Below the pieces are notes generated by a model, which ran no database searches, was not told the DNA's origin, and saw nothing but the letters and a program-made list of their open reading frames with translations. From NCBI GenBank assembly GCA_946887425.1, contig CAMPKW010000009.1, forward strand, positions 1 through 25,273: DNA of 25,273 nucleotides, written 5' to 3'. Each line of letters begins with the position of its first letter. The stretch's first letter is position 1. This DNA is from an uncultured Candidatus Saccharibacteria bacterium. Lineage in GTDB: Bacteria; Patescibacteria; Saccharimonadia; Saccharimonadales; UBA6022. Shown here in pieces: positions 8,124 through 21,750 of this stretch. Both the position numbers and the translations under genes were made by a program.

Positions 8124-8160
8124 ATATACCTCCTTGCCGAATGGGCGGATGTGATTAGGA

Positions 8161-9891
8161 TTATGACTGTTCATTGATTTCTCTCATAGCTTCAGAAACA
8201 GTTTTCACCGTCAGATTGCTCTTTTTTAAGATATCAAGTTGCTGCTGAAATTGTGCGGGGCTGACGACTGGTTCGCCTTGCGTATTTGTGTCGACGCGGT
8301 GATAGACGAGTATTAGCCAGCCGTTATTTGCCTTTACTTCGGCCAGAGCGTTAGCTAGCTTTGCTGGTGTTGTGTCGTTGCCTATATATAGAACCAGTAA
8401 GTTGTATGGATCAAGATTCTGACGGGTGTTGATGCCACTTTCTGTTCCGCGGAGCGAAGAGTAGTAGTTGCGCGCGTAATGGTTGACTTGATTATCTGTT
8501 CCACCGAACGGTACCGAAAATTGTACGGTGTGTTGTTTGTGTACTTGCTTGAAGTACTCACCTGCATGCTTTAACTGGTGATCGATAGATTGCGTATCGA
8601 GCGTTGTAAAATTAAGATGTTCGTACCCGTGAGAGGCAAGCTCGTGCCCATTCTTAGCAAGTGCAGTGACTTGATCTGAATTCACGAAACTTGTCGTATC
8701 GATAGCTGCCGGGTTAAGGTAAAACGTTGCCTTGTAGCCAAGCTGATCGAGTAGTGGAACGCCGTTCATGTGTGCAGATTCCCAGCCGTCATCAAACGTG
8801 ATAGAAACAAGTGGTCGTTTCCAGGCCGCTGCCCCCGGTTTCGAGATGTCGTAAAGCGTATATCCTCTTGTGTCGAGCGTACCATTGGAGTGGAGGGTTG
8901 GCGTCACTACTACACTTACGGCATTTGAGGGTGTTTCAAAGCTGCCAGTGTAGGTTGTCCATTCTTTTGCGGGTAGCAGTGTGGTGAGTGTGTAGAATTG
9001 GCGTTCGCCGGAGGCTAATACGTATTCGGCGACGATGTCAGAGGGTGTATCACTGCGGTAGCCTACACTAAATGAGAATGCTTGATTACCATGAGCGGAG
9101 ATTTCGGGGTATTGCCACTTCGCTTCACCGTCCTTGTAGTCACTTGCCTTGCTGCGGAGGTAGGCCGTCCCATCGTCGGTGACATAACTGGATGTGGTTT
9201 TATTATTGCCGCTCGTGAAACTCGTCCATTTGTCGGGCCATAATGATGTTTCATGGGATCGTTGAATCTTTGGAATGAGATTTTTCCCTTGGACTACCGT
9301 TGGTGGCTTGTGAACATTTGTTGGGTTCGCCTCTAGATAATTATTATCAATTTGAAGCTCGCCTTTTGCAGAAAAGCTGTAAATGAATTGAATGCTTTGA
9401 ACCTTAGGTTCCGGCGTAAACACATGGCTGACTGTCGTCCATTGCCTATCAGGTGAGTATTGCTTGGTGATAGCCAATTTTTTTGTCCCATCTGCATAGT
9501 TGGATTGCAAAATAAGATCAAACGGTACAGTCGACTTATAGAATCCCTTATAAAAGTATGTCGTATTGCTATCAGTAGCGACGAGTGGGCTTGATAGGGT
9601 CGTATTGGCACTAGGAGTTGCACTGCTATTTGTCAGTACGAGTAATTTCGGACTTTCATAGCCGGGTATGTTCGTGGCCGTTACTGCTGAGCTTGCGGGT
9701 GTAAACTCCCATCCCACGGGCAAACCACGATCATCGAGCGTATCAAGACCTCCGTTCGGAAGGACGTTTGAACGGGATACGTTAATTTGTGACTCGGCGC
9801 CCGTGTACTGGTGCCATGCGATCAGTAAAAGTGCAATGACTGGCAGAACAATCAGCAATGGGTTTTTAAGAATGCGCGATATCTTATTCAT
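8161..9891 (-). CDS. exported NodB-type polysaccharide deacetylase with N-terminal binding domains
   Basis: A second predicted glycan deacetylase, 576 aa. A membrane anchor (about 9-26) is followed by two beta-rich modules (about 36-190 and 200-350; NVLPNGGLDTLDDRGLPVGWEF at the start is typical of carbohydrate-binding modules), then a C-terminal NodB domain: SITFDDGW (Asp367/368), HELASHGYEHLN (His421, His425), FSVPFGGTD and LILVYHRVD (His531). The domain order is the reverse of the next gene, so the two enzymes are not simple duplicates. SITFDDGW and VYHRVD resemble deacetylases of the PgaB/IcaB side of the family. Its start overlaps the glycan synthase stop by 8 bases, and GGAGG precedes the ATG; translation is probably coupled. 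Confidence 0.92.
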   Translation of the reverse strand: MNKISRILKNPLLIVLPVIALLLIAWHQYTGAESQINVSRSNVLPNGGLDTLDDRGLPVGWEFTPASSAVTATNIPGYESPKLLVLTNSSATPSANTTLSSPLVATDSNTTYFYKGFYKSTVPFDLILQSNYADGTKKLAITKQYSPDRQWTTVSHVFTPEPKVQSIQFIYSFSAKGELQIDNNYLEANPTNVHKPPTVVQGKNLIPKIQRSHETSLWPDKWTSFTSGNNKTTSSYVTDDGTAYLRSKASDYKDGEAKWQYPEISAHGNQAFSFSVGYRSDTPSDIVAEYVLASGERQFYTLTTLLPAKEWTTYTGSFETPSNAVSVVVTPTLHSNGTLDTRGYTLYDISKPGAAAWKRPLVSITFDDGWESAHMNGVPLLDQLGYKATFYLNPAAIDTTSFVNSDQVTALAKNGHELASHGYEHLNFTTLDTQSIDHQLKHAGEYFKQVHKQHTVQFSVPFGGTDNQVNHYARNYYSSLRGTESGINTRQNLDPYNLLVLYIGNDTTPAKLANALAEVKANNGWLILVYHRVDTNTQGEPVVSPAQFQQQLDILKKSNLTVKTVSEAMREINEQS

Positions 9892-11212
9892 GTACCCCTC
9901 CTATGGTGCGAGTGTGAACGGTTGTTGTAGCGACGCCAGCAAGTCGGCCGCCGATACGATCTGGCGATATCCATGTGGAGTCTCTATTCTTATGTTCAGT
10001 TAAATCACGTGCCTTAATCATGCATTTTATGACCGCGAAAATCTGTATCAGATCCATGACGTAAAATACAAAATATGCAACTGGGACGTATAACGTGAGA
10101 TATACACGCTCAAGCCGACGCAAGTGATTGTTGTACCAGAGTGTGACAAGTACGTACATGGTAATGGTGAGGTAAGCACCTATGACGAGTAAAAGACTTT
10201 TGTGTGAAATGGTAAGATAAGCAGCGTATATCCATGTTAGTGGTAGAAGTAGCAACGTAATTTCAGTCATGATCGCTGCCGGCAGGCGGTATACGGTTAG
10301 CATTGAAGTGTACTTTGGTTTATTGGCACCAATTAGCGCGCGGTGCTTATAGAGATTCTGCATACTTCCATATTTCCATCGAAATCGCTGCCGAAACAGT
10401 GCTCGTATACTCTCTACTGACTCGGTCAATGCGACAACATCAACACCGTATATTATCCGATGTTGCTTATTGCCTTTTGCAACAACCTTCATGCTTAAGC
10501 TGATGTCTTCGGTCATAGTATCGGTGTCATAAAAATGCACTGACTTAATCGTGTCGACACGATATGTCGAGGCAACGCCTCCGATGATAAAGTCACAATT
10601 AGTGATTGAATAGGCTTTTTTCGATTGATAACTGATCATATGTTCAAATTTTTGCAGAATACTGAGTGTCGTGTGTTCGTTGAGTATCTGCACGTTTGCG
10701 GCAACTCCCGCCACATTTGGGTCGACAAAGTAACTTACTGCGCGCTCAATAGCTTGTGGCATAACAACTGAGTCCGCATCAAGCATCATGACCAGCTCTG
10801 TCCTTACATAGCGTCGTAGTGCGTAGTTGAGTCCGGCTCCCTTGCCAACATTGATGCGTTTATTGATAATGCGAAGCGAGCCATGGTCTTGCAGGCGACT
10901 GTAATCGCTGAGTATTCGCCTAGTTGCATCGGTCGAAGCGTCGTTGACCACGATGACTTCAATATTCTTGTATGTACTTGCAAATACCGAATTCAGACAA
11001 CGTGCGATCACCTTCTCTTCATTGTGGGCTGGTATGAGGATGGTGATATGAGGCGCGTAATCGGATACTATCCCCTTCTTTCGTAGAGTATAAATGCGCC
11101 GATGTTGCCAAATATCATACGCACTCGCTCCGATCAGGTAAAATCCGAGATGGACTATATATAGAATGCTCGTTATTGCGAATAGGTAAAGAATAATAGT
11201 GTTAACGATCAT
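9884..11212 (-). CDS. processive membrane glycosyltransferase, PgaC/IcaA-like glycan synthase
   Basis: A family 2 polymerising glycosyltransferase, 442 aa, with N-terminal membrane helices (about 3-30), a cytosolic GT-A domain and several C-terminal helices (about 310-400). All processive motifs are present: ILIPAHNEE (58-66), VVNDAST (Asp91), MLDADS (Asp145, Asp147), MTEDIS (Glu235, Asp236) and QRFRWKYG (275-282, the QxxRW motif). The pattern and the two deacetylase genes behind it match synthases of poly-beta-1,6-N-acetylglucosamine, but a hyaluronan- or chitin-like product is equally possible from sequence alone. Its start overlaps the 75-aa gene; its stop overlaps the first deacetylase. 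Confidence 0.9.
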   Translation of the reverse strand: MIVNTIILYLFAITSILYIVHLGFYLIGASAYDIWQHRRIYTLRKKGIVSDYAPHITILIPAHNEEKVIARCLNSVFASTYKNIEVIVVNDASTDATRRILSDYSRLQDHGSLRIINKRINVGKGAGLNYALRRYVRTELVMMLDADSVVMPQAIERAVSYFVDPNVAGVAANVQILNEHTTLSILQKFEHMISYQSKKAYSITNCDFIIGGVASTYRVDTIKSVHFYDTDTMTEDISLSMKVVAKGNKQHRIIYGVDVVALTESVESIRALFRQRFRWKYGSMQNLYKHRALIGANKPKYTSMLTVYRLPAAIMTEITLLLLPLTWIYAAYLTISHKSLLLVIGAYLTITMYVLVTLWYNNHLRRLERVYLTLYVPVAYFVFYVMDLIQIFAVIKCMIKARDLTEHKNRDSTWISPDRIGGRLAGVATTTVHTRTIGGVHE

Positions 11213-11429
11213 GATGCTTGCCTGCTATCTTTGTCAGATCGGAATGTACATAGGAAAGGGATCGTAGCGCAAATGTTGCCAGGTGCCTAACAACTAAACT
11301 TGCAGCGATTACGATCCAGATCCCAATACTAATGAGGCCGAGTATGGCCAGCAGTGTCGTGACACGTACGTGCTCGAAGCCTGTGAATTGATTGAAGTCG
11401 AATACGGTTGATAGAAAATCTGGTAACAT
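11202..11429 (-). CDS. small membrane protein of the polysaccharide operon, 75 aa
   Basis: I do not recognise the family. The protein has one long hydrophobic helix (about residues 24-47, LLAILGLISIGIWIVIAASLVV) followed by a basic, His-rich tail (HLATFALRSLSY...KHHDR). A strong purine-rich ribosome site (AGGGGGGTGG) precedes the ATG. It overlaps the start of the glycan synthase by 11 bases. Its place and size resemble small accessory subunits found with PgaC-type synthases (PgaD-like), but there is no clear sequence match. Confidence 0.7.
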   Translation of the reverse strand: MLPDFLSTVFDFNQFTGFEHVRVTTLLAILGLISIGIWIVIAASLVVRHLATFALRSLSYVHSDLTKIAGKHHDR

Positions 11430-11469: not shown

Positions 11470-11489
11470 GACTAGCTGTTAGGCTAGTC
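11470..11489 (-). terminator. hairpin overlapping the end of the coiled-coil gene
   Basis: A 7-bp perfect stem (GACTAGC with GCTAGTC) around a 6-base loop that contains the TAA stop of the preceding gene; on the minus strand it is followed by ATTTTAATA. It is a weak intrinsic terminator or attenuator between the coiled-coil gene and the glycan synthesis genes. Confidence 0.55.
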
Positions 11490-11742
11490 GTCGTCTAATG
11501 TTCACAAATAGTCGGTGGTAACGCTCGCTTGGCTTTTCCGCTTCTTTGATCATTTTTTCGAGTCGCTTTATGTCGTGCATGAGAAATTCACGTTCGAGTC
11601 GTCGAATCGATTGCACATTTTTTGGTTCATTTTTATTTTTTAAATCGCTACTAACATGTTCATAGCGCTCGCTGAGACGGTTAAGCTTTTCGCGAAGATC
11701 CTGGACTGTGAACATCGCTGAAGCGCTTGCGTACTTTTCCAT
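11479..11742 (-). CDS. GreA N-terminal-like coiled-coil protein, 87 aa
   Basis: A small, highly charged helical protein: heptad-like leucines run through DLREKLNRLSERYEHVSSDL and IRRLEREFLMHDIKRLEKMIKEAE, then a basic tail (RYHRLFVNIRRRLA). No membrane segment. Aligned without gaps over 58 residues it shares 14 identities with the N-terminal coil of the GreA-like protein at 18895-19347 (common positions include LR, RY, LK-K, E-E, D, E). It has no GreA C-terminal domain. The start at 11742 is chosen for GGAGG 5 bases upstream. First gene on the polysaccharide side and divergent from a Crp-family gene, just as its relative is. Confidence 0.72.
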   Translation of the reverse strand: MEKYASASAMFTVQDLREKLNRLSERYEHVSSDLKNKNEPKNVQSIRRLEREFLMHDIKRLEKMIKEAEKPSERYHRLFVNIRRRLA

Positions 11743-11776
11743 TTTCACCTCCTATTGCCTTACTTTCCTACAAAGT

Positions 11777-11782
11777 AATATA
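11777..11782 (-). promoter_or_regulatory. -10 box of the polysaccharide operon
   Basis: TATATT on the minus strand, predicted start near 11770 and a leader of about 28 bases that includes the GGAGG ribosome site. No -35 box is visible, which fits an activated promoter; a palindrome (11807-11818) and a CRP-type site (11827-11844) lie upstream. Confidence 0.45.
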
Positions 11783-11806
11783 TCTCACAGTGGGCTTTGG
11801 GGTGCG

Positions 11807-11818
11807 TGATGATCATCA
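11807..11818. promoter_or_regulatory. 12-bp palindrome TGATGATCATCA
   Basis: A perfect palindrome of the form TGAT-N4-ATCA between the divergent coiled-coil and Crp genes. Its centre is about 42 bases upstream of the predicted start of the polysaccharide operon, the position where activators often bind. The same outline occurs at 6233-6244 with a different centre. Confidence 0.4.
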
Positions 11819-11826
11819 AGCAAGCA

Positions 11827-11844
11827 TTGTGATATTGCGCACAA
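11827..11844. promoter_or_regulatory. CRP-type operator TTGTGA-TATTGC-GCACAA
   Basis: A CRP-like dyad with half-sites TTGTGA and GCACAA, one mismatch from perfect symmetry; the outer bases at 11826 and 11845 also pair. It sits between the divergent Crp-family gene and the polysaccharide operon, about 65 bases from the predicted start of each. Confidence 0.65.
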
Positions 11845-11887
11845 TCGAATTAGTAGTATCATGAAAGCGGGAGATACGAGTTGTGTC

Positions 11888-11893
11888 TATACT
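11888..11893 (+). promoter_or_regulatory. -10 box of the first Crp-family gene
   Basis: TATACT on the plus strand, predicted start near 11900, leader of about 15 bases to the ATG at 11915. No clear -35 box. Confidence 0.4.
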
Positions 11894-11914
11894 ATATGCC
11901 GTACGACATTGTCT

Positions 11915-12565
11915 ATGAAACCTGCTACCCATCAAGCAATTGGTGACTTTTTTGCCAGGTATCCAGTTCGGCATTATAAAAAAGGCCACATTCTTATTCT
12001 TGCCGGCGAGAAAGCATCGTCGGCTTTTTATTTAACGGAGGGAAAGATACGCGTTTACGACATTACTTATCGCGGAGAAGAAATTATTATCAATAGTTTT
12101 GACCCTCCTACGTTCTTTCCGCTATCTTTGATTCTTAATTCATCAACAACTCGCTATATATACGAAGCGACCACTGACATTACAGTCCGGCAGGCGCCTA
12201 TTGACGATGCTATACATTTTCTTACGACTCACCCGCCTGTTGTATTTGATCTGCTTGCCCATCTTTATGCAACACTCGACACGGTTTTGGAACGAATGGT
12301 ACATTTTATCTCTAGTGGTGCAAAAAATCGAATTATTTATAGCCTCATTGCAGAGTGTAAGCAGTTTGGTAAGCCCCAAGAGGATGGTAGCTACATCGTA
12401 ACGATTACAGAAAGAGAGCTTGGGTCTCGGGCTGGCTTATCACGGGAGACCGTTAGTCGTGAAGCAAGGGTTCTTAAGATCGCAAAACTGATTGAAGTGC
12501 ACCATAGTAGTATAGTGATTCCGAATTTGAAACGACTTGAACGCTACTTGGAAATCCATAATTGA
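11915..12565 (+). CDS. Crp/Fnr-family transcription regulator
   Basis: A 216-aa regulator with an N-terminal cyclic-nucleotide-binding-like beta-roll (about 1-110), a dimer helix (about 110-140) and a winged helix (about 150-210). The recognition helix reads SRETVSRE with Arg177, Glu178 and Arg182 in the places of E. coli CRP Arg180, Glu181 and Arg185. There is no N-terminal cysteine cluster, so it is not an FNR-type iron-sulfur sensor, and the cAMP phosphate-binding signature (GE-x-AL...R-x-A) is not seen; the ligand is unknown. The start at 11915 is chosen because its paralog at 19505 aligns without gaps from there; an ATG at 11861 would add 18 unrelated residues. It probably controls itself, the divergent operon and the GH10 gene. 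Confidence 0.93.
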   Translation: MKPATHQAIGDFFARYPVRHYKKGHILILAGEKASSAFYLTEGKIRVYDITYRGEEIIINSFDPPTFFPLSLILNSSTTRYIYEATTDITVRQAPIDDAIHFLTTHPPVVFDLLAHLYATLDTVLERMVHFISSGAKNRIIYSLIAECKQFGKPQEDGSYIVTITERELGSRAGLSRETVSREARVLKIAKLIEVHHSSIVIPNLKRLERYLEIHN

Positions 12566-12587
12566 TCAAACAGTAATCATTGATATG

Positions 12588-12605
12588 ATGTGATCAAGCG
12601 CACAT
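12588..12605. promoter_or_regulatory. CRP-type operator ATGTGA-TCAAGC-GCACAT
   Basis: A CRP-like dyad with half-sites ATGTGA and GCACAT, matching the site at 11827 in its right half. It is 48 bases before the GH10 start codon. A weak -10 candidate TAAAGT (12626-12631) would put the site at about -41.5, the position of a class II activator. Confidence 0.6.
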
Positions 12606-12652
12606 ACTTTTTTATTTTCTAAGCGTAAAGTTGGAATAAATGGAGGGTGTGA

Positions 12653-14401
12653 GTGACGAGAAATACGACCGTAGCGATTAAAAAGGTGTCCGGATATAAG
12701 TACCTTGTTTTGGTACTGGTTGGAATGGTTATACTCTTTGCGTATTACGTGTTGAGTGGACGTTCGTTTTTGCACGTCTCAGCACAGGACGATAAGATTA
12801 ATTTGTTGGAGTCTGGGTGGAACTATATGCCTGGCGTCCTGTCAAAACCCGACGGTCTTCATGTGTCACATCTTGGCAGGGCGATTGTTCGACAGGATGG
12901 ATCCGGGGGCCAGATTAATCCACCCATTAATATATATGGCACACATCTTCAAACTTCGGGCTCTTACACATTGCATATGACACTAAAGGACATTAAGGGT
13001 GCTGCTATTATACGCCTGTATGACAGTTTACCTGTAATCCAGGATGAATTTAGAGTTGAGCCAAGTAGCTTGGAGCTGAAGTTGGTAGACAACATGGCTA
13101 CGGTATCTATCTGGGGTGGCTACAAAAATGAAAAATTATCTCGGCAGCTACCAGCCAAGACGACCAGCTATGCGGTCTCGCCCCTCGAAACCGCTCGTGT
13201 CACTTTATCTCGCCAAGACGACAGAATAACAATTGACTTAAATGGAAAACGACTCGCAGTATTGCCACAAAACGACCTCTTGAAAGATAGGGTGTGGTTT
13301 GGAATGTCAGCCGAGAACCCAGGTGATACATGGACGCTGTCGCAACTCGAAGCTGATGCATCTGCGGATATCCTTGCGGTTAATACCGAGAATATGGAAG
13401 CGTACCGCAAATCGAATGACGCCCTTCAAGTAGTGGCGAGCAGTACGCGACCTGGGTTTATCGTCGGTGCGGCTACGGCGCTAGGGCCAATGGTTGAAGA
13501 TAGGCGTTACGCGGCTATTGCACTAGGCGGCCAGTTTGGGCAAGTAACTACGGAAAATGTGCTGAAATGGCAATTTATTCATCCACAGCCTGGGGTTTAT
13601 GATTTTCGAGATGCTGACGCCATGGTGGATATGGCGAGAAAAAATGATCTTTTAGTTCACGGTCACACACTCGTATTTGGCGAGGCAAATCCGGCATGGG
13701 TGCAAAAATTACCAAGCAGCACGGTCGATGAAAAGGCATACATAAATCAAGTAATGGTCGATCATATTACCCAGACTGTCGGTCATTTTAAGGGAAGGGT
13801 TGCGTCTTGGGATGTGATCAATGAGCCTTTGGCTGACTTTGGTGTGGCTGGGTCTAGTGGCCTTCGCAACCACATATGGCTTAAGGCATCGGGTGAGGAC
13901 TATATTGCAAGCGCATTCATGGCTGCACGGGAGGCCGATCCTCGAGCACAACTCTATATAAATGAGTATGGGCTTGAGTCGAATGGAGAGCGATGGGGCA
14001 CTTTCTTGGCATTGGTGAAAAAGCTTAAAGTCCAAGGCGTACCTATTGACGGTGTTGGATTCCAAGGGCATGTATATGATTCCGGTGACATCATCAACCC
14101 CGTCACACTGCGAAGTCATATCCGTGAACTTGCCGAATTGGGTCTCACTTCTCGTATCTCCGAGATGGATGTATATAGCGATGATGGCACTGAGGTGCAA
14201 GCCAAGCAGTATGCCGATGTGTTTAACGTATGCTTTACTGAGCCAAGTTGTGTTTCTTGGTCGACTTGGGGCGTGACGGATCGGTATAATTTTTGGCAAG
14301 ATGAAAGTGGCCGCTTGCAACATGGGCGCGACTTCTTATGGGATGAAAAATACCGTCCGACGGCAGCTGTATCCGCGATACAGAGTATGATTCACCGATA
14401 A
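12653..14401 (+). CDS. membrane-anchored glycoside hydrolase family 10 protein
   Basis: A predicted retaining endo-beta-glycanase, 582 aa. An N-terminal membrane anchor (about 16-33) is followed by a beta-rich accessory domain (about 45-235) and a GH10 catalytic barrel (about 260-580). Landmarks are TTENVLKWQFIHP (299-311), GHTLVF (337-342), WDVINEPL with acid/base Glu391, QGHVYD, ISEMDVY with nucleophile Glu504 and STWGVTDRYNFW. Most GH10 xylanases read LVWH after GHT; here it is LVFG, so substrate binding near the cleavage site may differ. Start codon is GTG with GGAGG 6 bases before it. It follows a Crp-family gene and has its own CRP-type site. Xylan or a self-made surface glycan are both possible substrates. 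Confidence 0.92.
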   Translation: MTRNTTVAIKKVSGYKYLVLVLVGMVILFAYYVLSGRSFLHVSAQDDKINLLESGWNYMPGVLSKPDGLHVSHLGRAIVRQDGSGGQINPPINIYGTHLQTSGSYTLHMTLKDIKGAAIIRLYDSLPVIQDEFRVEPSSLELKLVDNMATVSIWGGYKNEKLSRQLPAKTTSYAVSPLETARVTLSRQDDRITIDLNGKRLAVLPQNDLLKDRVWFGMSAENPGDTWTLSQLEADASADILAVNTENMEAYRKSNDALQVVASSTRPGFIVGAATALGPMVEDRRYAAIALGGQFGQVTTENVLKWQFIHPQPGVYDFRDADAMVDMARKNDLLVHGHTLVFGEANPAWVQKLPSSTVDEKAYINQVMVDHITQTVGHFKGRVASWDVINEPLADFGVAGSSGLRNHIWLKASGEDYIASAFMAAREADPRAQLYINEYGLESNGERWGTFLALVKKLKVQGVPIDGVGFQGHVYDSGDIINPVTLRSHIRELAELGLTSRISEMDVYSDDGTEVQAKQYADVFNVCFTEPSCVSWSTWGVTDRYNFWQDESGRLQHGRDFLWDEKYRPTAAVSAIQSMIHR

Positions 14402-14823
14402 ATATTGTTCGCAGTCGATTGCACGGGAGTGGCAAATTCATATACAAGCTGCTCTGATCGGTGTTCGCTATTTTTAAATAGCTCAGGTCTCATAAATGTC
14501 ACTTCGTCTGCATCTGCACCGATACCATATCTAAGATCATCTACCTGTACTTCGTATACGAGCCAGAGTAGCCATGCCTCTCTTTTCTCCAAATATAGTG
14601 ACGCGGTGTTTACCAGCGTCGCTTTAAAGTCGGAAGTGATAAGCGCCTCTTCGTACAATTCGCGCTTCAGTGCATCATGTGTTGTTTCGCCATGATCCAT
14701 GCCGCCGCCGGGTAGTGTCCATTTACTACCGTTTTCTTTGACGACCAAAACCTCACCGGCATCATTGCGAATAATTGCTTTTAGAGATACTCGGTAAAAT
14801 GCATCTGGATATTTTCCACTCAT
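14392..14823 (-). CDS. Nudix hydrolase
   Basis: A single-domain Nudix hydrolase of 143 aa, cleaving a nucleoside diphosphate linked to another group. The Nudix box is complete (GGGMDHGETTHDALKRELYEEA, split here as GGGMDHGE-TTHDALK-RELYEEA), giving the Mg-binding REx2EE core. The region before it (RVSLKAIIRNDAGEVLVVKE) is the usual opening strand pair. Specific substrate cannot be told. It converges on the GH10 gene and overlaps its end by 10 bases. Confidence 0.93.
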   Translation of the reverse strand: MSGKYPDAFYRVSLKAIIRNDAGEVLVVKENGSKWTLPGGGMDHGETTHDALKRELYEEALITSDFKATLVNTASLYLEKREAWLLWLVYEVQVDDLRYGIGADADEVTFMRPELFKNSEHRSEQLVYEFATPVQSTANNIYR

Positions 14824-14829
14824 TCAAAT

Positions 14830-14838
14830 ATTGTAGCA
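14830..14838 (-). promoter_or_regulatory. extended -10 promoter, leaderless Nudix gene
   Basis: On the minus strand TGC-TACAAT (-10 at 14830-14835) stands exactly 6 bases before the ATG at 14823, so the predicted start is the A of the start codon. No Shine-Dalgarno sequence. Confidence 0.65.
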
Positions 14839-14845
14839 GATCAAT

Positions 14846-15727
14846 CTAGCGGAATAGTCGCTCATACCAGTTGAGGGCACGTTCTCGGTATGACATCGGC
14901 GTATTGTCATACGTTTGCGATGAGGGTTCGACGTAGCGTGATAGCACGCTTGTCGCAATCGCCTGCTGGCCTGCCGCAGTAGGATGAAATGGCATAGCGC
15001 CTGACGGGCCTTGTACCCAGCTGTCAGAGCTACATAGCCCGTGACCAGCGAAATTCACAGGTGCATATGTGCCGTACGAATACTTGGAAACAGTGCGGTT
15101 GATCGCACTATTAAGCCCGTCAATCCTGGTATTGAGCCATGACACCTCCTGGGCTGTGATACCTGCCGTGTCATCGCAGGTGGTAGTCGAAAGTGGATTG
15201 TAGTATCCCGTAACGATAACTTGAGGTGGCGAGCCATCGCTGAGAGAGTGTATCTTTGCCATGATGACATTAAGTTCAAGTCTTAAATCAATAAGATAGG
15301 CATTAAAACGAGCCGTGTCGACGCTATAGCCGCATCGAATGTAGTAACACTGTCGTATAAATTGTGTCCAACGTGTGTCGTTTGCGCCAACAGTAAGTGT
15401 GATAAGGTCGGGTGTGCCATTTGCAAATGCTTGATCAAGTTGTGCAGGAAGAGTAGCGTGGCTGGTTTCCTGCGAGTCGTATATGCCTTCGTCTGCTTTT
15501 GCTCCTGTGCATGCATAGTGCTGCACTGATAGTCCTGTCGATGTTCCCACTGTATACGGATAGGCTCCTGAAGAGCGGTCGCATATGGTAGTGACTTCAC
15601 TTAGTCCGGCCCCGGATGCTACAGAGTCGCCAAGTGCGGCGTAGTTACCATTGGCGGCAAATGTAGTGGTTGAAAATAACGCGGACATTCCTAGCGTTAA
15701 AACTGCGATGACGATAAAGCGTTTCAT
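14846..15727 (-). CDS. secreted SGNH/GDSL-type esterase
   Basis: A secreted ester hydrolase of 293 aa. A signal peptide (residues 1-24, AFSTTTFA-like end) gives an export route; the mature part has the SGNH blocks: ALGDSVASG with nucleophile Ser35, TLTVGANDT (block III Asn) and PFHPTAAGQ with the catalytic His. Six cysteines are present in the exported part, which suggests disulfides. GGAGGGAAAG precedes the ATG as ribosome site. Possible roles are removal of acyl groups from surface or environmental polysaccharide or lipid; the GH10 and deacetylase genes nearby make a polysaccharide ester an attractive but unproven substrate. Confidence 0.9.
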   Translation of the reverse strand: MKRFIVIAVLTLGMSALFSTTTFAANGNYAALGDSVASGAGLSEVTTICDRSSGAYPYTVGTSTGLSVQHYACTGAKADEGIYDSQETSHATLPAQLDQAFANGTPDLITLTVGANDTRWTQFIRQCYYIRCGYSVDTARFNAYLIDLRLELNVIMAKIHSLSDGSPPQVIVTGYYNPLSTTTCDDTAGITAQEVSWLNTRIDGLNSAINRTVSKYSYGTYAPVNFAGHGLCSSDSWVQGPSGAMPFHPTAAGQQAIATSVLSRYVEPSSQTYDNTPMSYRERALNWYERLFR

Positions 15728-15775
15728 AACTTTCCCTCCTCATTCCTTCACAGACTTCCACGAATAACTACCTCT

Positions 15776-15805
15776 ATTATAATACTTTTTCCAAACAACT
15801 CGCAA
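15776..15805 (-). promoter_or_regulatory. promoter of the SGNH esterase gene
   Basis: On the minus strand TTGCGA (15800-15805), 18 bases, then a perfect TATAAT (15776-15781). Predicted leader of about 42 bases, carrying a Shine-Dalgarno sequence. Between this promoter and the end of the electron-transfer operon at 15893 no gene or clear terminator was found. Confidence 0.65.
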
Positions 15806-15892
15806 GTTGACCGCAACGCATCTGCACTAGTTGGGTTGCTCTAGGTTCGATATGGTGCGGCCAATCTTGTCCCTTTCGGATAGGATCAGAAA

Positions 15893-17398
15893 TCAATACC
15901 CAATAAAATAATCGGTTACAATCTTTTTTGCTCTGATGTGCTTTGATAAATTCTTAGCGCTATCAACGAGTGCTGGTGGCCCAGATATGTACACGTGCCT
16001 CATGGCGATATCTGGAACAATCTTTTGAATAAGCTGCTTGGTGAAGTGCGGCGCATCCATGTAGTGCCATCCGTCAACTAGCCGTGCGATATTGTCTGTC
16101 GGCGCGAGAATGAAAACGGCAATACCCGATTCCTTAAGGATGTCCTTGTATGCAATCTCTTCATGGCTACTTACTGCGTAGATGAGTGTAATATCTCTCA
16201 CCTCCTCGGTGTGGCGCAGGTGGCGCAAGTGGCTAATGAACGGCGTAATGCCAATCCCGCCAGCAATATATAGGAGCGGAATTTTTGCATCCTTAGGCAG
16301 AACAAAATCGCCATTTATGCCAGTGGCCGATATGGCTGAACTTGCTGGGAGTGCCTTAAGGTTGCGTTTAAAAGTGCTAGGAGGATCATAAAACTTTACA
16401 GCAAGACGTACATCTTTGTCCTCCGGGGCGGACGTGAGGCTGAATACGCGACGTACCCCTCTCATATCCTTGCCTCTATGTGGCAATGTCAGTTCGATAT
16501 ATTGACCTGCCTCAAAGTTAAGTACATCGTTGGGAGAAAATGTGAATTCATACGAGGTTGGTGTGAGTTCTCTGCGATTTTCATACTTGAGTGTTATTGA
16601 ACCTCGCCTGGTGAGCATGAACGCAATGAGGTTGCCGATAAGGAGTGCGACGGCTGGGTTTGTTGCAAAATCACCGATGTGGATTGGTATGGCAAAGAGC
16701 GCAGCGATGATAGTTGCTTCGATAATCTGCTGCCATCGCTTCTGCGGTAACGTGAGCGGTTCACTCAGCATAAAGCCGGCAAAAAATAGCAGCGGCCATG
16801 AGGCGAGCAATCCTATGCTTTCAGCCAATCCGCTTCCATATGACATCATCGTACTGATGATGATGAGTGATGCCAGTATTAAGAATATCCCGCCAATTAG
16901 TAGTCGACGAGTCTTATATAGGATTAATCCGGTCAAGAGCAACGTAGCCGGGAGTAGCGGTGGTGTTGCTACCCACCATGACGCAAATCCAAGCCCCGTA
17001 AGACTTATGACGAACGCGGCAATAGCTGCAGGATTAAAGATGTGCCGGCCGTAATACGCAAGAACGAATTTTGAAGCCGCAGCAATACAACCCGTTAGTA
17101 CAAGTGCCAGCAGTCCAGATGGCTCTAATGTCGGTGTGAATATGAAAAAAAGAATAAGTGCGGTGATGTATGATGATTCACTATGAACACGAACGCCAAA
17201 GAGAGAGCCGAACAAAAGACTTAAGAGATAGGTTGAAGTTACGAGGACAAGGGCGCTTACAATGATTGCAAGCGGCGGGTACGTGATACTGTTCGCTAGT
17301 GAGAGTGCGAGCGACATGCTCCATAATAGTGTGAGCGCAATAGAGACAAGTCGGTACATTGAAACATGATTAAGGAGGCGGTTGGCTATAGTGTGCAT
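15893..17398 (-). CDS. RnfD/NqrB-like membrane domain fused to ferredoxin-reductase (FAD/NAD) domain
   Basis: A predicted transmembrane electron carrier, 501 aa. Residues about 15-262 hold eight to ten membrane helices with NqrB/RnfD-family features (GRHIFNPAAIAAFVI at 117-131, GFMLSEPLTLPQKRWQ at 208-223). Residues about 268-501 are an FNR-type module: FEAGQYIELTLP, FAD motif RRVFSLTSAP (316-325), NAD(P)-binding GGIGITP (380-386), YISGPPALVDS and a C-terminal DYFIGY. It should take electrons from NAD(P)H in the cytoplasm and pass them into or across the membrane. No SGAT-type covalent flavin site is seen in the membrane part. Starts inside the ApbE stop codon (TAATG), so the operon is tightly coupled. 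Confidence 0.9.
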   Translation of the reverse strand: MHTIANRLLNHVSMYRLVSIALTLLWSMSLALSLANSITYPPLAIIVSALVLVTSTYLLSLLFGSLFGVRVHSESSYITALILFFIFTPTLEPSGLLALVLTGCIAAASKFVLAYYGRHIFNPAAIAAFVISLTGLGFASWWVATPPLLPATLLLTGLILYKTRRLLIGGIFLILASLIIISTMMSYGSGLAESIGLLASWPLLFFAGFMLSEPLTLPQKRWQQIIEATIIAALFAIPIHIGDFATNPAVALLIGNLIAFMLTRRGSITLKYENRRELTPTSYEFTFSPNDVLNFEAGQYIELTLPHRGKDMRGVRRVFSLTSAPEDKDVRLAVKFYDPPSTFKRNLKALPASSAISATGINGDFVLPKDAKIPLLYIAGGIGITPFISHLRHLRHTEEVRDITLIYAVSSHEEIAYKDILKESGIAVFILAPTDNIARLVDGWHYMDAPHFTKQLIQKIVPDIAMRHVYISGPPALVDSAKNLSKHIRAKKIVTDYFIGY

Positions 17399-18255
17399 TA
17401 GAACAATTCTCCTTTAATGTTATGTGAATAGTCAATGTGCCCATTTGAATCTACGCGTACATATTGAAAATCATATATATCGCTAAATGTAGTCGGCTCG
17501 ACGAAAAATAATGCGGTCGCTAGGCCGTCTGCTATTAAGGTCTCTTTCGCTACTACCCAGGTCGCTACGATGTTAGTTGTCGGTGCCTGGGTGTCTGGGT
17601 CGAATATGTGATGCAGGTTATCACCCCACCTTCTTCGATTTACGGCTGATGCGGCAAGGCTTTCGTTTTGTACATCTACTGTACCGATTATTTTCTTTGG
17701 ATCAAAAGGATGTTCAAGCCCTACTCTATTTTGAATTGTTCCTTTGTGGCGGAGATCTCCACTTGCGTCAATGACATAGTTATCTATGGATGCATCATCG
17801 AGTATGCGCGATACGATATCAACAAGGTATCCTTTGCCAGCGGCGCCAACGTCCAACATGACTGGTTGGGTGGTGTATAATCGTAACCCTTCTCGTCTTA
17901 TCGTATCGTCCCAGCCCGGAAGCGGGCGTTGTGCTTTTGGCTCAAACGAATACAGCGCATCATACCCAGCTCGTTCGAGCGTCGCACCAATAAGAGGTGT
18001 TACTTTTCCGGCGGTCTGATCATACAGTACTTTATAAAAATCAAGTAACATATCTGCATTTGATGGAAGTTCATATTCCCCCGCTGCCTTGGCAATTTGC
18101 GTCACGAGAGAATCGGCTCGAAAGCGTGAGTAAGTGTGGTCAAAGTCATCGATCTCTGTATGGATCTTTGCGAGTAGTCTATCTGGCAAAAGTGACTGAG
18201 TGTCTATGCTCCATGCTGTACCAAGAGCCTCGAATTGGTGTTTATGCAGCAGCAT
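17398..18255 (-). CDS. apbE: FAD:protein FMN transferase, ApbE family
   Basis: Attaches FMN from FAD covalently to a Ser/Thr of a target protein. The 285-aa product has the family motifs ALGTAWSI (10-17), MLDVGAAGKGYLVD (133-146), VIDASGDLRHKG (161-172), HHIFDPDTQAP (215-225) and IADGLATALF (241-250) with the conserved metal-site Asp. The obvious partner is the FMN-binding protein encoded just upstream, whose stop it overlaps by 14 bases. Unusually, no signal peptide or lipobox is visible at the start (MLLHKHQFEALG), though the flavin acceptor appears to be outside the membrane. Confidence 0.93.
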   Translation of the reverse strand: MLLHKHQFEALGTAWSIDTQSLLPDRLLAKIHTEIDDFDHTYSRFRADSLVTQIAKAAGEYELPSNADMLLDFYKVLYDQTAGKVTPLIGATLERAGYDALYSFEPKAQRPLPGWDDTIRREGLRLYTTQPVMLDVGAAGKGYLVDIVSRILDDASIDNYVIDASGDLRHKGTIQNRVGLEHPFDPKKIIGTVDVQNESLAASAVNRRRWGDNLHHIFDPDTQAPTTNIVATWVVAKETLIADGLATALFFVEPTTFSDIYDFQYVRVDSNGHIDYSHNIKGELF

Positions 18256-18730
18256 CGGTTTTAATTTGTTCTAGCGCGGTATTAAAACCATTTGAAGTTA
18301 GCGAAGAGCCAGCAACGCGTGAAAGCGAAACTTCATTGATGTCCTTGCCCACAATAAGGTCTTTATAGCCTGATGCAAATCTTTGCTGATACTCTTTTGC
18401 TTCGCCGGTCATTGCGTTCTGCTTGAGATTGGTGGCGGTAACGATGTCGTTAGAAATTTGCACAGTAAGCTCAATAGATTCCCTGCCGCCAGGCGTAGAG
18501 TAGGAGCCTGTAGCGACGTAGGTGCCGTTTTTGTACGACGATGTCGAACTATCTGGCGATTGAGACGGTGTACTTTCTGTAGGTGTGTTTTGGGTGCTTG
18601 GGGCAGGGTTTGTGGTTTCTTTGTTTGCGGAATCCTTGTTTACGGTAATTGCCGCTGCAATGGCAACGCCAATTAGTACGACAACTATGATTGCGGCAAC
18701 TGCTGGACTTATTTTCCTCGCTGACTCCAT
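18242..18730 (-). CDS. membrane-anchored FMN-binding domain protein
   Basis: A 162-aa extracytoplasmic electron carrier. One membrane helix (about 9-30) is followed by a Ser/Thr/Pro/Gln-rich linker (about 34-64) and an FMN-binding domain (about 65-160: YKNGTYVATGSYSTPGGRESIELTV, then VAGSSLTSNGFNTALEQI). The AGSSLTS stretch (140-146) occupies the place of the S-G-A-T-x-T/S flavinylation motif of RnfG/NqrC-type domains, with a serine (Ser143) as the predicted FMN acceptor. GGGGG precedes the ATG. It begins the operon with apbE and the reductase. The 164 bases before it (18731-18894) hold only AT-rich promoter-like sequence and a weak 6-bp hairpin; no gene found. Confidence 0.85.
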   Translation of the reverse strand: MESARKISPAVAAIIVVVLIGVAIAAAITVNKDSANKETTNPAPSTQNTPTESTPSQSPDSSTSSYKNGTYVATGSYSTPGGRESIELTVQISNDIVTATNLKQNAMTGEAKEYQQRFASGYKDLIVGKDINEVSLSRVAGSSLTSNGFNTALEQIKTDAAA

Positions 18731-18894
18731 GATCCCCCTTGGTTATATAACTAATTTTAACAAATTAAATTGAGTTAGTGCTTAAAACGAATGATATTTA
18801 TTCTGTGTAGTAGCCCTGAGGTTAAAGTATTTATTATGCAGGGTCATGCTACGTAGTGACACATGCCCAAGAATCTATGGTGCATTCTTACTGA

Positions 18895-19347
18895 CTAGGC
18901 AAGGTCTGTAATGGTAAGATGATGATCGCCACGGGGCGTCACGATCATGACAGAATCGCCAATTTGGCGGCCAAATAACATCGAGCCTACCGGTGACTGG
19001 ATAGATATATAGCCCTCGAGTGGATCTGCTTCAAGTGGGTCGACAAGAGTTACGACATGCTCCTCCTTCGTGTCGTTTTGCATGTAGGTAACTTGTGTGC
19101 CCTGCTCGGCTTGAAGTGGCGGCGCATTCTTCTCTATGACGGTTGCATTCGATAGGATTGTCTCAACTTTTAGCATGTCTGAAAAAATAATTTCTTTCTC
19201 AATAATTTTATCTGCCATGATACTACTACTCTGGGTCTTGTCTTTTAGTTCTTGGGTGATATTCAAGTATCTTTTTTGTAAACCTTCAAATTGAGCCCGA
19301 AGTTTCTCGACGCCTAGTATCGTAAGTGCAGTAGTGTGGTGGTACAT
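18895..19347 (-). CDS. GreA/GreB-like transcription factor lacking the acidic tip
   Basis: A 150-aa protein with the two-part Gre layout: an N-terminal coiled coil (about 10-70, LGVEKLRAQFEGLQKRYLNITQELK...) and a C-terminal FKBP-like domain (about 78-150, with GTQVTYMQ, HVVTLVDPLEADP, ISIQSPVGSMLFGRQIGDSVMIVTP). The C-terminal signature 'SPVGSMLFGRQIGD' is characteristic of Gre factors. The tip sequence, usually GDLSEN with two catalytic acidic residues, reads TQSSSI here. It may therefore bind the RNA polymerase channel without stimulating RNA cleavage. The start at 19347 is chosen because a GGGGA site lies 9 bases upstream and upstream sequence is not Gre-like. Divergent from the second Crp-family gene. 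Confidence 0.85.
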   Translation of the reverse strand: MYHHTTALTILGVEKLRAQFEGLQKRYLNITQELKDKTQSSSIMADKIIEKEIIFSDMLKVETILSNATVIEKNAPPLQAEQGTQVTYMQNDTKEEHVVTLVDPLEADPLEGYISIQSPVGSMLFGRQIGDSVMIVTPRGDHHLTITDLA

Positions 19348-19433
19348 GACATTTAGTCCCCTATTTCTAACTTGTAATGTGTTGATAGTACTGCAGAGGT
19401 CTGGCAAGATCCGTGGCATACAATAATAATTAT

Positions 19434-19451
19434 GTGTGATTTTTGTCACAC
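19434..19451. promoter_or_regulatory. CRP-type operator GTGTGA-TTTTTG-TCACAC
   Basis: A perfect dyad, half-sites GTGTGA and TCACAC, identical to the E. coli CRP core TGTGA-N6-TCACA. It lies directly upstream of the -35 region of the Crp-family gene at 19505 and about 87 bases before the GreA-like start, so it could serve autoregulation, the divergent gene, or both. Confidence 0.78.
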
Positions 19452-19458
19452 TTCCCTA

Positions 19459-19487
19459 TTGTGTATGGTGCTACATAAGCATATAGT
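19459..19487 (+). promoter_or_regulatory. promoter of the second Crp-family gene
   Basis: TTGTGT (19459-19464), 17 bases, TATAGT (19482-19487). Predicted start near 19494; the CRP-type dyad would be centred near -51.5. Confidence 0.5.
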
Positions 19488-19504
19488 TGTACAAAAGGAT
19501 ATCG

Positions 19505-20149
19505 ATGGACAGAAATATACAAAAGAGTCTTGACGATTTTTTCTCACAATACCCCCTGAAACAATACAATAAGGGGCAACTTCTTATTTACGCTCATGAA
19601 GATCCGACGGGTATCTTTTATCTCGAACGCGGAAGTGTGCGCAAATACGACATAGGGCATGAAGGCGATGAGGTGGTGTTGAATGTATTTAAAGAAAAAA
19701 TCTTCTTTCCTATGGCCTGGGCTATCAATAAAACACCCAATCATTATTTCTTTGAAGCAACAGAACCGATTGATGTAAGGCGTGCTCCGGTTGAAGCGTT
19801 TAATGCTTTTTTGGAAGCACATCCGGAGATTGTATTTCACTTACTAAAGAAGGTGTACAAGGGGCTCGAGGATGCACAGCACCGCACCGTGCTTCTTATG
19901 AGTGGCGATGCTCATCAGCGTCTTTTGTTTGAGCTATATATGGAGGGGCGTCGATCTGGTGAGCTTCAAGATGATGGCTCGTGTGTTGTCAATGTCAGCT
20001 TGACCGATCTTGCTCAGCGAGCTGGTTTGACACGCGAAACTATTAGTCGCGAACTGGGAAAAATCATCCAATCACATGAGCTGATATCACGTCAGAATCG
20101 CTCTTTGGTCATTAGTGACCTTCACGCCCTGAAGCAACAGATTAGCTAA
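19505..20149 (+). CDS. Crp/Fnr-family transcription regulator, second paralog
   Basis: A 214-aa paralog of the regulator at 11915; the two align without gaps for about 200 residues. It shows the same beta-roll (KGQLLIYAHEDPTGIFYLERGSVRKYD), dimer helix and winged helix. The recognition helix TRETISRE has Arg177, Glu178 and Arg182 at the same residue numbers. No FNR cysteine cluster and no cAMP signature. The ATG at 19505 is chosen for AAAGGA 5 bases upstream and for the match to the paralog start. Divergent from the GreA-like gene; convergent with a membrane protein gene with a 4-base overlap. Confidence 0.93.
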   Translation: MDRNIQKSLDDFFSQYPLKQYNKGQLLIYAHEDPTGIFYLERGSVRKYDIGHEGDEVVLNVFKEKIFFPMAWAINKTPNHYFFEATEPIDVRRAPVEAFNAFLEAHPEIVFHLLKKVYKGLEDAQHRTVLLMSGDAHQRLLFELYMEGRRSGELQDDGSCVVNVSLTDLAQRAGLTRETISRELGKIIQSHELISRQNRSLVISDLHALKQQIS

Positions 20150-20725: not shown

Positions 20726-21253
20726 CTAGCCTGATATGTATGCCGATTGCCAACTGCCGTTATAGAAGAATATGTCTCGATCAGTGCCTATGGTCTGATT
20801 TATGCCGGCATCTTGGCATATGTCTGTTGTTCCAGTTCCAGCCCATGCGGACGATTGCGTGATGAGTCCGGTAGCAGATTTGTAGATAAATAAATTGCCC
20901 GACTTGGAGGCGGCTACCAACGCAAACTTATTTGGCCCCTCTGCAGTAACTCGACAGTATACGAGATTGTGAATGTTGTTTCCAAAACCATTTCCATATG
21001 CCGATTTTGTGACTTTAATGCCGAGTGTAGCTAGCTGTGTATCGCCGACCGGAAAAACATACTTTTCTGCATTGTAGAGTTCTAGCTGTTTTGCGATGTT
21101 CTTGAGATCATTTTGAACCGATGTGTCATAGCCGCGGTTTTGAATGCCATTGTAAGAAACGACAGTAATAGCTGCCAGAATGCCGATAACAACAATAACA
21201 ACTAGTAGTTCGACGATTGTGAATCCAGGTTGATGCTTATGTTTTACCCACAT
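20726..21253 (-). CDS. type IV pilin-like protein
   Basis: A 175-aa prepilin-like protein. The class III leader is MWVKHKHQPG, cleaved before Phe11; the mature N-terminus FTIVELLVVIVVIGILAAIT has Glu5 and the standard hydrophobic helix, followed by YNGIQNRGYDTSVQNDLKNIAKQLELYNAEK (the usual pseudopilin alpha region) and a beta-rich head with two cysteines. The start at 21253 is set by the leader and by the sister pilin. No assembly ATPase or prepilin peptidase is in the window, so the machine is encoded elsewhere. Confidence 0.93.
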   Translation of the reverse strand: MWVKHKHQPGFTIVELLVVIVVIGILAAITVVSYNGIQNRGYDTSVQNDLKNIAKQLELYNAEKYVFPVGDTQLATLGIKVTKSAYGNGFGNNIHNLVYCRVTAEGPNKFALVAASKSGNLFIYKSATGLITQSSAWAGTGTTDICQDAGINQTIGTDRDIFFYNGSWQSAYISG

Positions 21254-21263
21254 GTATAGCATA

Positions 21264-21272
21264 AGTATATCA
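21264..21272 (-). promoter_or_regulatory. extended -10 promoter of the pilin-like gene
   Basis: On the minus strand TGA-TATACT (-10 at 21264-21269), 10 bases before the ATG; predicted leader about 4 bases. The sister pilin has TATACT at the same distance. Confidence 0.55.
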
Positions 21273-21311
21273 GACTCTTTGGTGAGTATGGTTACTGGCA
21301 CAAGATGGCCG

Positions 21312-21692
21312 TTACTGCGCTGCAATTAGCAGAGTGGAGATGGCGAGTATCAAGGCGACAGGTGTCATAAGATTACGTTCTGGTTTGCTGCGCGAGATGC
21401 CGTTCATTACTACGCCAATACAAAAATATATAGCGAGTATCCATATGCCCATATTCGTGATCGTACGATCGCTCAGGAGCATCATTATTTCAGCCTTACT
21501 AAGAATGATGACAGCGAAAATGCCGTATAAAAGGATTGATATCGCGCTTCCAATCCGCAGATTGAGTGGAAGAATTGTATGCGCTCCGCCCCAGGAATAC
21601 TTGCCGATTGGAGCACCAAAAATGAGTGCTAGTTGAAAAAGTGTAAGACCAAGTAAAATAACACAAGAGACGACTGCGAGGGTTTCTATCAT
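21312..21692 (-). CDS. four-helix small membrane protein, unknown
   Basis: A 126-aa protein with four hydrophobic helices (about 5-27, 48-66, 80-98, 106-125). Conserved-looking motifs are FGAPIGKYSWGGAHTILPLNLRIGSA near the first loop and ERNLMTPVALILAIS near the end; I recall similar small membrane proteins in several bacteria but no function. It lies between the two pilin-like genes on the same strand with its own leaderless promoter. Confidence 0.78.
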   Translation of the reverse strand: MIETLAVVSCVILLGLTLFQLALIFGAPIGKYSWGGAHTILPLNLRIGSAISILLYGIFAVIILSKAEIMMLLSDRTITNMGIWILAIYFCIGVVMNGISRSKPERNLMTPVALILAISTLLIAAQ

Positions 21693-21698
21693 GGCTCA

Positions 21699-21707
21699 AT
21701 CATAACA
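21699..21707 (-). promoter_or_regulatory. extended -10 promoter, leaderless membrane protein gene
   Basis: On the minus strand TGT-TATGAT (-10 at 21699-21704) stands exactly 6 bases before the ATG at 21692. No Shine-Dalgarno sequence. Confidence 0.58.
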
Positions 21708-21750
21708 GCTGACTACATCAAATCACAGCTGCGCATGTAATAATTACTTA

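What the first reader, a model, noticed from the sequence alone, without database searches (positions are those of the whole stretch)
11479..20149. Duplicated divergent module: Crp-family regulator facing a GreA-like coiled-coil protein
At 11479-12565 a Crp-family gene (plus) is divergent from an 87-aa coiled-coil gene (minus). At 18895-20149 a paralogous Crp-family gene is divergent from a GreA-like gene in the same arrangement. The 87-aa protein aligns without gaps to the coil of the GreA-like protein over 58 residues with 14 identities, and at the same distance from the N-terminus. One module flanks a polysaccharide operon, the other a flavin electron-transfer operon. A pair in which a Crp activator is linked to a protein that could enter the RNA polymerase secondary channel would be a new kind of paired transcription control. 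Coiled-coil similarity can arise by chance; the context is the stronger argument.
Basis: partly seen in the sequence, partly recalled or inferred. Interest (0 to 1): 0.72.

Follow-up and report, generated by a model that had tools for sequence, protein, structure and literature searches.

The report
Crp regulators paired with Gre-family proteins
In one lineage of tiny Saccharibacteria, two Crp-type gene switches each sit back to back with a protein of the Gre family (factors that reach into RNA polymerase), and one of those proteins has shrunk to little more than the hairpin that would enter the polymerase, which would be an unusual link between switching a gene on and controlling the polymerase itself.

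Summary
The 87-aa protein (11479-11742, minus) is a true homologue of the Gre N-terminal hairpin: profile-profile E 9.4e-17 against the GreA-like family, and 1.5e-13 with the bridging protein left out. That bridge, full-length P0054, is 47% identical to it over 78 residues and joins it on the tree. It looks like a GreA-like duplicate that lost its polymerase-docking domain.

Both pairs recur in Saccharibacteria UBA4727, 13.8 kb apart on one contig, and in no other genome sampled (GreA-like in 1 of 394; coil in 1 of 392).

New here: all four shared promoter regions carry a Crp-type operator TGTGA-N6-TCACA with at most one mismatch, 21.5 bp from a possible crp -10 (autorepression layout), and in 5 of 6 loci of the lineage a weaker second operator 23 bp away.

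The GreA-like protein keeps the Gre fold and docking domain, but its tip is about 5 residues shorter and keeps at most one of two catalytic acids. The two Crps are older paralogues, so the module was not copied as one unit. What the bare hairpin does is unknown. New variant of a known kind.

The parts
11479..11742 (-). Gre-hairpin-only ('coil') protein, 87 aa; first gene of the same-strand polysaccharide gene run
11915..12565 (+). Crp1, Crp/Fnr-type regulator (216 aa from ATG 11915; ORF opens at 11861)
11828..11843 (.). Crp-type operator TGTGATATTGCGCACA (1 mismatch) in the coil/crp1 shared promoter region
11805..11820 (-). weak second operator CTTGATGATCATCACG (3 mismatches), 23 bp from the first; about -42.5 for the coil promoter if the -10 call is right
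11777..11782 (-). candidate -10 (TATATT) of the coil promoter
11857..11862 (+). candidate -10 (TATCAT) of crp1, 21.5 bp from the operator centre
12589..12604 (+). Crp-type operator TGTGATCAAGCGCACA (1 mismatch) between crp1 and the GH10 gene; a perfect site lies at the corresponding place in UBA4727
12653..14401 (+). GH10 family glycoside hydrolase; a relative follows crp in UBA4727 and G107
11202..11429 (-). small putative membrane protein (75 aa) after the coil gene; relatives at the same place in UBA4727 and G092
9884..11212 (-). GT2 glycosyltransferase; kept in UBA4727 (69%) and G092 (64%)
6312..9891 (-). two polysaccharide deacetylase genes, same strand, probably the same operon
18895..19347 (-). 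GreA-like protein, 150 aa: Gre fold, shortened tip with at most one of two catalytic acids, C-terminal docking domain present
19505..20149 (+). Crp2, Crp/Fnr-type regulator (ATG 19505; ORF also open from TTG 19487)
19435..19450 (.). perfect Crp-type operator TGTGATTTTTGTCACA in the greA-like/crp2 shared promoter region
19385..19390 (-). candidate -10 (TACTAT, 2 mismatches) of the greA-like promoter
19464..19469 (+). candidate -10 (TATGGT, 2 mismatches) of crp2, 21.5 bp from the operator centre
15893..18730 (-). flavin electron-transfer genes downstream of greA-like: a small ORF without Pfam family, ApbE, NAD-binding oxidoreductase (not recognised by eye beside greA-like in UBA4727)

Best explanation
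Each module is a Crp/Fnr-type regulator divergent from a gene run that begins with a Gre-family protein, and the Crp itself probably controls both directions. Shown by sequence: a strong operator lies over the likely -35 region of crp and upstream of a possible -10 of the Gre-type gene, with a weaker second operator 23 bp further on at most loci of this lineage. Inferred: bound Crp represses its own gene by blocking its promoter and activates the divergent genes, for which the second operator would sit near -42 and the strong one near -65. The Gre-type protein is thus made together with the polysaccharide or flavin genes. The full-length GreA-like protein most likely docks on RNA polymerase through its C-terminal domain and puts a shortened hairpin with little or no cleavage activity into the secondary channel, competing with canonical GreA (a Gfh1- or Rnk-like modulator). 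The 87-aa protein is its duplicate reduced to the hairpin plus a short C-terminal stretch, basic overall. It most likely still acts on the polymerase or on the GreA-like protein as a weak, co-expressed partner or antagonist; that last step is the least certain.
Against: No expression, binding or polymerase data. The GreA-like tip keeps an Asp aligned with the first catalytic acid (alignment there is uncertain because of the length change), and in mycobacterial Gre the first acid was essential while changing the second kept activity (PMC3132773, passages read), so some cleavage activity is possible. The Gre-side -10 spacing is only modestly better than chance (51 of 2000 shuffles as good with 1 base of tolerance, 34 of 2000 with none). 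The six loci are orthologues or paralogues, so shuffles overstate the significance. Outside the lineage the layout mostly fails: 3 of 16 other operator sites have a hexamer with 2 or fewer mismatches at the crp -10 offset, and 1 of 16 has the second operator. Window module 2 has a degenerate second site (6 mismatches). The perfect genome-wide sites are not confined to these genes; some lie inside ORFs or beside unrelated genes. In E. coli both Gre domains seem needed for specific polymerase binding, and overexpressed NTD lacked the lethal effect of whole GreA (PMC7527559, passages read). The coil model has no significant PDB match. The pairing is confirmed in a single other genome, and the genes after greA-like differ there.
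Confidence: 0.55

Rival explanations
1. Ordinary regulator-beside-target arrangement: Crp1 and Crp2 are divergent autoregulated regulators, as elsewhere in the family, and a Gre-like gene happens to head each target gene run; the pairing has no special mechanism and the coil is a decaying duplicate.
For: 17 of 43 other Crp genes examined also have an operator (0-1 mismatch) upstream and no Gre neighbour. The pair-1 locus exists without the coil: in G092 (GT2 genes divergent from crp, no coil ORF and no tblastn match) and, beside GH10, in G107. The coil is less conserved (39%) than its neighbours (48-69%).
Against: 18 database homologues of the coil (one aligned over only 48%) keep the hairpin pattern down to 55% identity. 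The gene is intact in two species whose neighbouring proteins differ by 31-52%. Both Gre copies stand at Crp-divergent promoters.
Confidence: 0.3
2. The hairpin protein's main target is not RNA polymerase: it pairs with the GreA-like protein or with a Crp and titrates it, giving a feedback loop between the two modules.
For: It lacks the polymerase-docking domain; its hairpin is in register with that of GreA-like; it is basic (net +7 against 0 for the GreA-like N-terminal part, K+R minus D+E).
Against: Gre hairpins are intramolecular in solved structures (recalled), and no interaction was computed here; no complex prediction was on offer.
Confidence: 0.25
3. Chance similarity of coiled coils.
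For: Pairwise identity is only 24% over 68 residues, and no Pfam or NCBIfam Gre model matches the coil at E 0.1.
Against: Profile-profile E 9.4e-17, still 1.5e-13 without the bridge protein; bridge P0054 at 47%; nesting in the tree.
Confidence: 0.01

Closest known systems
Gfh1 (Thermus anti-cleavage GreA homologue)
   Same: Best-scoring solved sequence for the GreA-like family (4.8e-17) and same fold; a Gre paralogue beside a canonical GreA.
   Different: [quoted passage not shown] here the tip is about 5 residues shorter with usually one acidic residue, and the gene is Crp-linked.
GreA/GreB transcript cleavage factors
   Same: Two-domain fold and C-terminal domain PF01272.
   Different: No match to PF03449 (GreA N-terminal) at E 0.1 and no GDLxEN motif, unlike the canonical GreA of UBA4727; the 87-aa protein has no C-terminal domain at all.
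Rnk
   Same: A Gre-type protein with a shorter hairpin that competes with Gre factors for polymerase (PMC4598747, passages read).
   Different: The Rnk hairpin is described as much shorter; GreA-like loses only about 5 residues.
TraR (plasmid-encoded small DksA relative)
   Same: A reduced secondary-channel factor (PMC4598747, passages read).
   Different: DksA family, there described as predicted to be a single helix; here a Gre hairpin without the globular domain.
CRP / NtcA regulators
   Same: Crp/Fnr domains; NtcA 2.7e-21 and CRP 2.6e-20 among solved structures; CRP-like TGTGA-N6-TCACA operator.
   Different: CRP E72 and S83 (recalled as cAMP contacts) are not kept in the alignment, though an Arg at the R82 place is kept in some; no class III cyclase was found in the 3 genomes searched. 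The ligand is unknown.

Membership tests
GreA/GreB transcript cleavage factor (GreA-like protein) | Gre C-terminal domain | tested here: met
   PF01272 E 3.1e-19, above cutoff
GreA/GreB transcript cleavage factor (GreA-like protein) | N-terminal helical hairpin | tested here: met
   predicted H10-35 and H41-67, pLDDT 91; whole-chain match to GreA and polymerase-bound Gfh1
GreA/GreB transcript cleavage factor (GreA-like protein) | two acidic catalytic residues at the tip | tested here: inconclusive
   D-x-x-E of the canonical GreA aligns with D-K-T-Q here, so at most one of two is kept, and the tip is about 5 residues shorter, which makes the alignment uncertain; 6 of 28 rows of the family have 3-4 acidic residues there
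GreA/GreB transcript cleavage factor (GreA-like protein) | stimulates transcript cleavage | not testable with these tools
   needs purified polymerase
Gfh1-type anti-cleavage factor (GreA-like protein) | inhibits polymerase and competes with GreA | not testable with these tools
   closest by sequence and fold only
Gre family (87-aa coil protein) | common descent with the Gre N-terminal hairpin | tested here: met
Gre family (87-aa coil protein) | C-terminal polymerase-docking domain | tested here: not met
   87 aa, no PF01272; the C-terminus is predicted as one short helix, residues 73-86, with low confidence
Crp/Fnr superfamily (Crp1, Crp2) | cNMP-binding fold plus Crp-type HTH | tested here: met
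   PF00027 and PF13545 above cutoff in both
Cyclic-AMP-responsive CRP | cAMP-binding residues and a cyclase | tested here: inconclusive
   E72/S83 equivalents not kept in the alignment (the residues are recalled); 0 of 3 genomes with a class III cyclase, genomes may be incomplete; other cyclase classes not searched

The most novel reading that the evidence does not exclude
A Gre-family hairpin has been released as a free-standing regulator, made only when a Crp switch turns on, that reaches the polymerase secondary channel without its own docking domain, perhaps helped by the Crp bound close to polymerase or by the full-length GreA-like partner. This would be two-level control in which one switch sets both promoter activity and the behaviour of the polymerase.
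Probability: 0.2. Interest if true: 0.85.

Novelty: new variant of a known kind. Interest (0 to 1): 0.6.

Why it matters
Bacterial secondary-channel factors are described as a globular domain that docks plus a hairpin that acts (PMC4598747, passages read). A family of hairpin-only Gre proteins, with a full-length sister still in the databases, lets one ask whether the hairpin alone can regulate transcription, and why a genome of about 0.9 Mb (UBA4727) keeps five Gre-related genes. The operators give a testable regulon logic for Crp-type regulators in Saccharibacteria.

Tried and rejected
Rejected: chance coiled-coil similarity; simple duplication of the whole Crp+Gre module (one search puts Crp1 with the coil-less loci and Crp2 elsewhere); Crp-Gre pairing as a general rule in the family (0 of 43 other Crp genes in 40 fetched regions has a Gre-type immediate neighbour; no Crp of this type in the 18 regions nor in L009-L011, all around other Gre genes, one place twice).

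Led nowhere: the genome-contig scan with the coil alignment found nothing, nor did viral contigs; because the scan reads only exact patterns, it could miss diverged coils (it missed that of UBA4727). The coil model gave no significant fold match; NCBIfam and PHROGs gave only weak matches for it, under the NCBIfam cut-offs. Literature searches (listings, plus passages of three papers) showed no hairpin-only Gre and no Crp/Gre pair; two searches returned 0 papers and mostly unrelated ones, so this is weak evidence of absence. The operator search at up to 2 mismatches is not above chance over the whole window (16 found, 12.65 expected) nor over the two UBA4727 stretches (9 against 4.81; 5 against 9.28); the argument rests on positions and on 0-1 mismatch sites, one of which (3412) lies inside a kinase gene and is probably chance. 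Promoter similarity after the box is uneven: window and UBA4727 coil regions share 27 of 55 bases (p 0.0002), but the two greA-like regions only 14 of 55 (p 0.65).

Change made on checking: the catalytic acids are now called at most one of two kept, not lost, and the confidence of the best explanation went from 0.58 to 0.55 for that reason.
Full report
What was checked. The window holds two divergent pairs. Pair 1: an 87-aa protein (11479-11742, minus) and Crp1 (plus). Pair 2: a 150-aa GreA-like protein (18895-19347, minus) and Crp2 (plus). Both Crps carry the cNMP-binding and Crp HTH domains; the GreA-like protein carries the Gre C-terminal domain; the 87-aa protein matches no Pfam family above cutoff. 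The Crps are 38% identical.

The coil protein is a Gre hairpin. Direct BLASTP gives 16 of 68 identities without gaps. A search returned 18 coil homologues, one aligned over only 48%, and 32 GreA-like proteins, the window's own included and three of them short fragments. The two profiles align at E 9.4e-17 over 77 columns. That GreA-like profile contained P0054, so I repeated the comparison without it: E 1.5e-13, and the window coil is still found at 1.6e-13 among 1792 ORFs. P0054, a full-length 149-aa protein with a Gre C-terminal domain, is 47% identical to the coil over 78 residues. On a tree of the hairpin part (35 rows: 12 coil, 21 GreA-like, 2 other Gre proteins; 10 of the 18 coil hits and 19 of the 32 GreA-like hits were used, with the window and UBA4727 proteins; 68 columns, few for so many rows), the coil rows group together (92/88), P0054 joins them (100/99), and all lie inside the GreA-like family (97/97). 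The plain reading is duplication of a GreA-like gene, then loss of the C-terminal domain.

Structures. The GreA-like model (pLDDT 91) matches GreA and polymerase-bound Gfh1 over the whole chain. Its hairpin is about 5 residues shorter at the tip. Where the canonical GreA of UBA4727 has D-L-S-E, the GreA-like protein has D-K-T-Q and the coil N-K-N-E, so at most one of the two catalytic acids is kept in either; the alignment at the tip is uncertain. Six of 28 GreA-like rows have 3-4 acidic residues in this stretch. The coil model is a confident hairpin plus a low-confidence C-terminal helix. A hairpin this simple has no significant PDB match, so the homology argument is from sequence.

Related genomes. 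The only locus found by the genome-contig scan with the GreA-like alignment is in Candidatus Saccharibacteria UBA4727. It has both pairs, 13.8 kb apart on one contig: coil divergent from Crp1, between relatives of the same GT2 and GH10 genes as in the window, and GreA-like divergent from two tandem Crps. Identities to the window: Crp1 63%, Crp2 61%; GreA-like 55%, coil 39%, GT2 69%, GH10 55%. In 394 family genomes only UBA4727 passes E 1e-27 for GreA-like, and in 392 order genomes only UBA4727 has a coil match at E 1e-6; both are samples of larger groups. UBA4727 has five Gre-related genes, one a canonical GreA. Among 295 family genomes, 88 have a Crp of this type at E 1e-12. I examined 40 fetched regions, from the upper part of that list, with 43 such Crp genes outside the modules: none has a Gre-type immediate neighbour, one (L136) has a Gre gene about 4.7 kb away. 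In two of the four other genomes of the genus the pair-1 locus exists without a coil: G092 has the GT2 genes divergent from crp, G107 has crp followed by GH10.

The Crps are not a recent duplicate pair. Crp1 groups with the coil-less loci of G092 and G107 and, one step out, with the extra tandem Crp of UBA4727; Crp2 falls in another subgroup with UBA4727 Crp2. The modules therefore share a Gre duplication but not a recent Crp duplication.

Operators. TGTGA-N6-TCACA with 0-1 mismatch occurs in all four shared promoter regions of the window and UBA4727, and between crp1 and GH10 in both. Perfect sites are rare in whole genomes: 4, 5 and 5 in G001, G107 and G092, against controls of 1, 0 and 0; some of them lie inside ORFs or beside unrelated genes. 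On the crp side a -10-like hexamer (1-2 mismatches) starts 21.5 bp from the operator centre in 6 of 6 loci of this lineage (0 of 2000 dinucleotide shuffles as good), which places the operator over the -35; at the 16 other operator sites examined only 3 have such a hexamer. On the Gre side a -10-like hexamer lies about 53 bp away in 4 of 4, a weaker result (51 of 2000 shuffles as good with 1 base of tolerance, 34 of 2000 with none). A second, weaker operator lies 23 bp from the first in 5 of 6 loci with 2-3 mismatches; it is degenerate in window pair 2 (6 mismatches), and among the 16 other sites 1 has it (0 of 2000 simple shuffles as low in summed mismatches for the six). The six loci are related by descent, which shuffles do not allow for. 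Among the 43 other Crps, 17 have an operator with 0-1 mismatch upstream. The -10 calls and distances are predictions, not mapped starts.

Ligand. NtcA and CRP are the closest solved structures. The alignment does not keep CRP E72 and S83 (recalled as cAMP contacts), and no class III cyclase was found in G001, G107 or G092. The signal is unknown.

Literature. PMC4598747 (passages read): the C-terminal domain of secondary-channel factors is held responsible for binding polymerase, two acidic residues typically sit at the tip, and Gfh1, Rv3788 and Rnk displace Gre proteins in vitro. PMC7527559 (passages read): the E. coli GreA NTD is described as responsible for antipause activity, both domains seem needed for specific binding, and NTD alone was not lethal when overexpressed. 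PMC3132773 (passages read): a mycobacterial Gre homologue lacks cleavage activity although it keeps the acidic residues; in the active one the first acid was essential while a change of the second kept activity.

Verdict. Crp control of both Gre-type genes is supported by sequence but not shown by experiment. The GreA-like protein is probably a modulator with reduced or no cleavage. The role of the bare hairpin is the open and interesting part.

Noticed in passing
L003, L004, L006 (UBA4727 contigs 47, 5, 38): UBA4727 has three further Gre-type genes besides coil and GreA-like: a canonical GreA, a diverged two-domain Gre without the GDLxEN tip, and a third with a distinct N-terminal part.
   Followed up: partly
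L110, L112, L113, L114: Four Crp genes of this family are divergent from a conserved 63-64-aa protein starting MNRL(H/R)IV and followed by a PspC-like gene (name by eye): another divergent Crp partner.
   Followed up: no
L008 15135-15150 (UBA4727 contig 25, 35135): A perfect Crp-type operator upstream of a cellulose-synthase-like glycosyltransferase gene (name by eye), suggesting a polysaccharide regulon.
   Followed up: partly
window 23213-24688: PLP-dependent enzyme domain fused to a rhodanese domain.
   Followed up: no
window 20726-22272: Two proteins with prepilin N-methylation motifs close together (pilin-like cluster).
   Followed up: no
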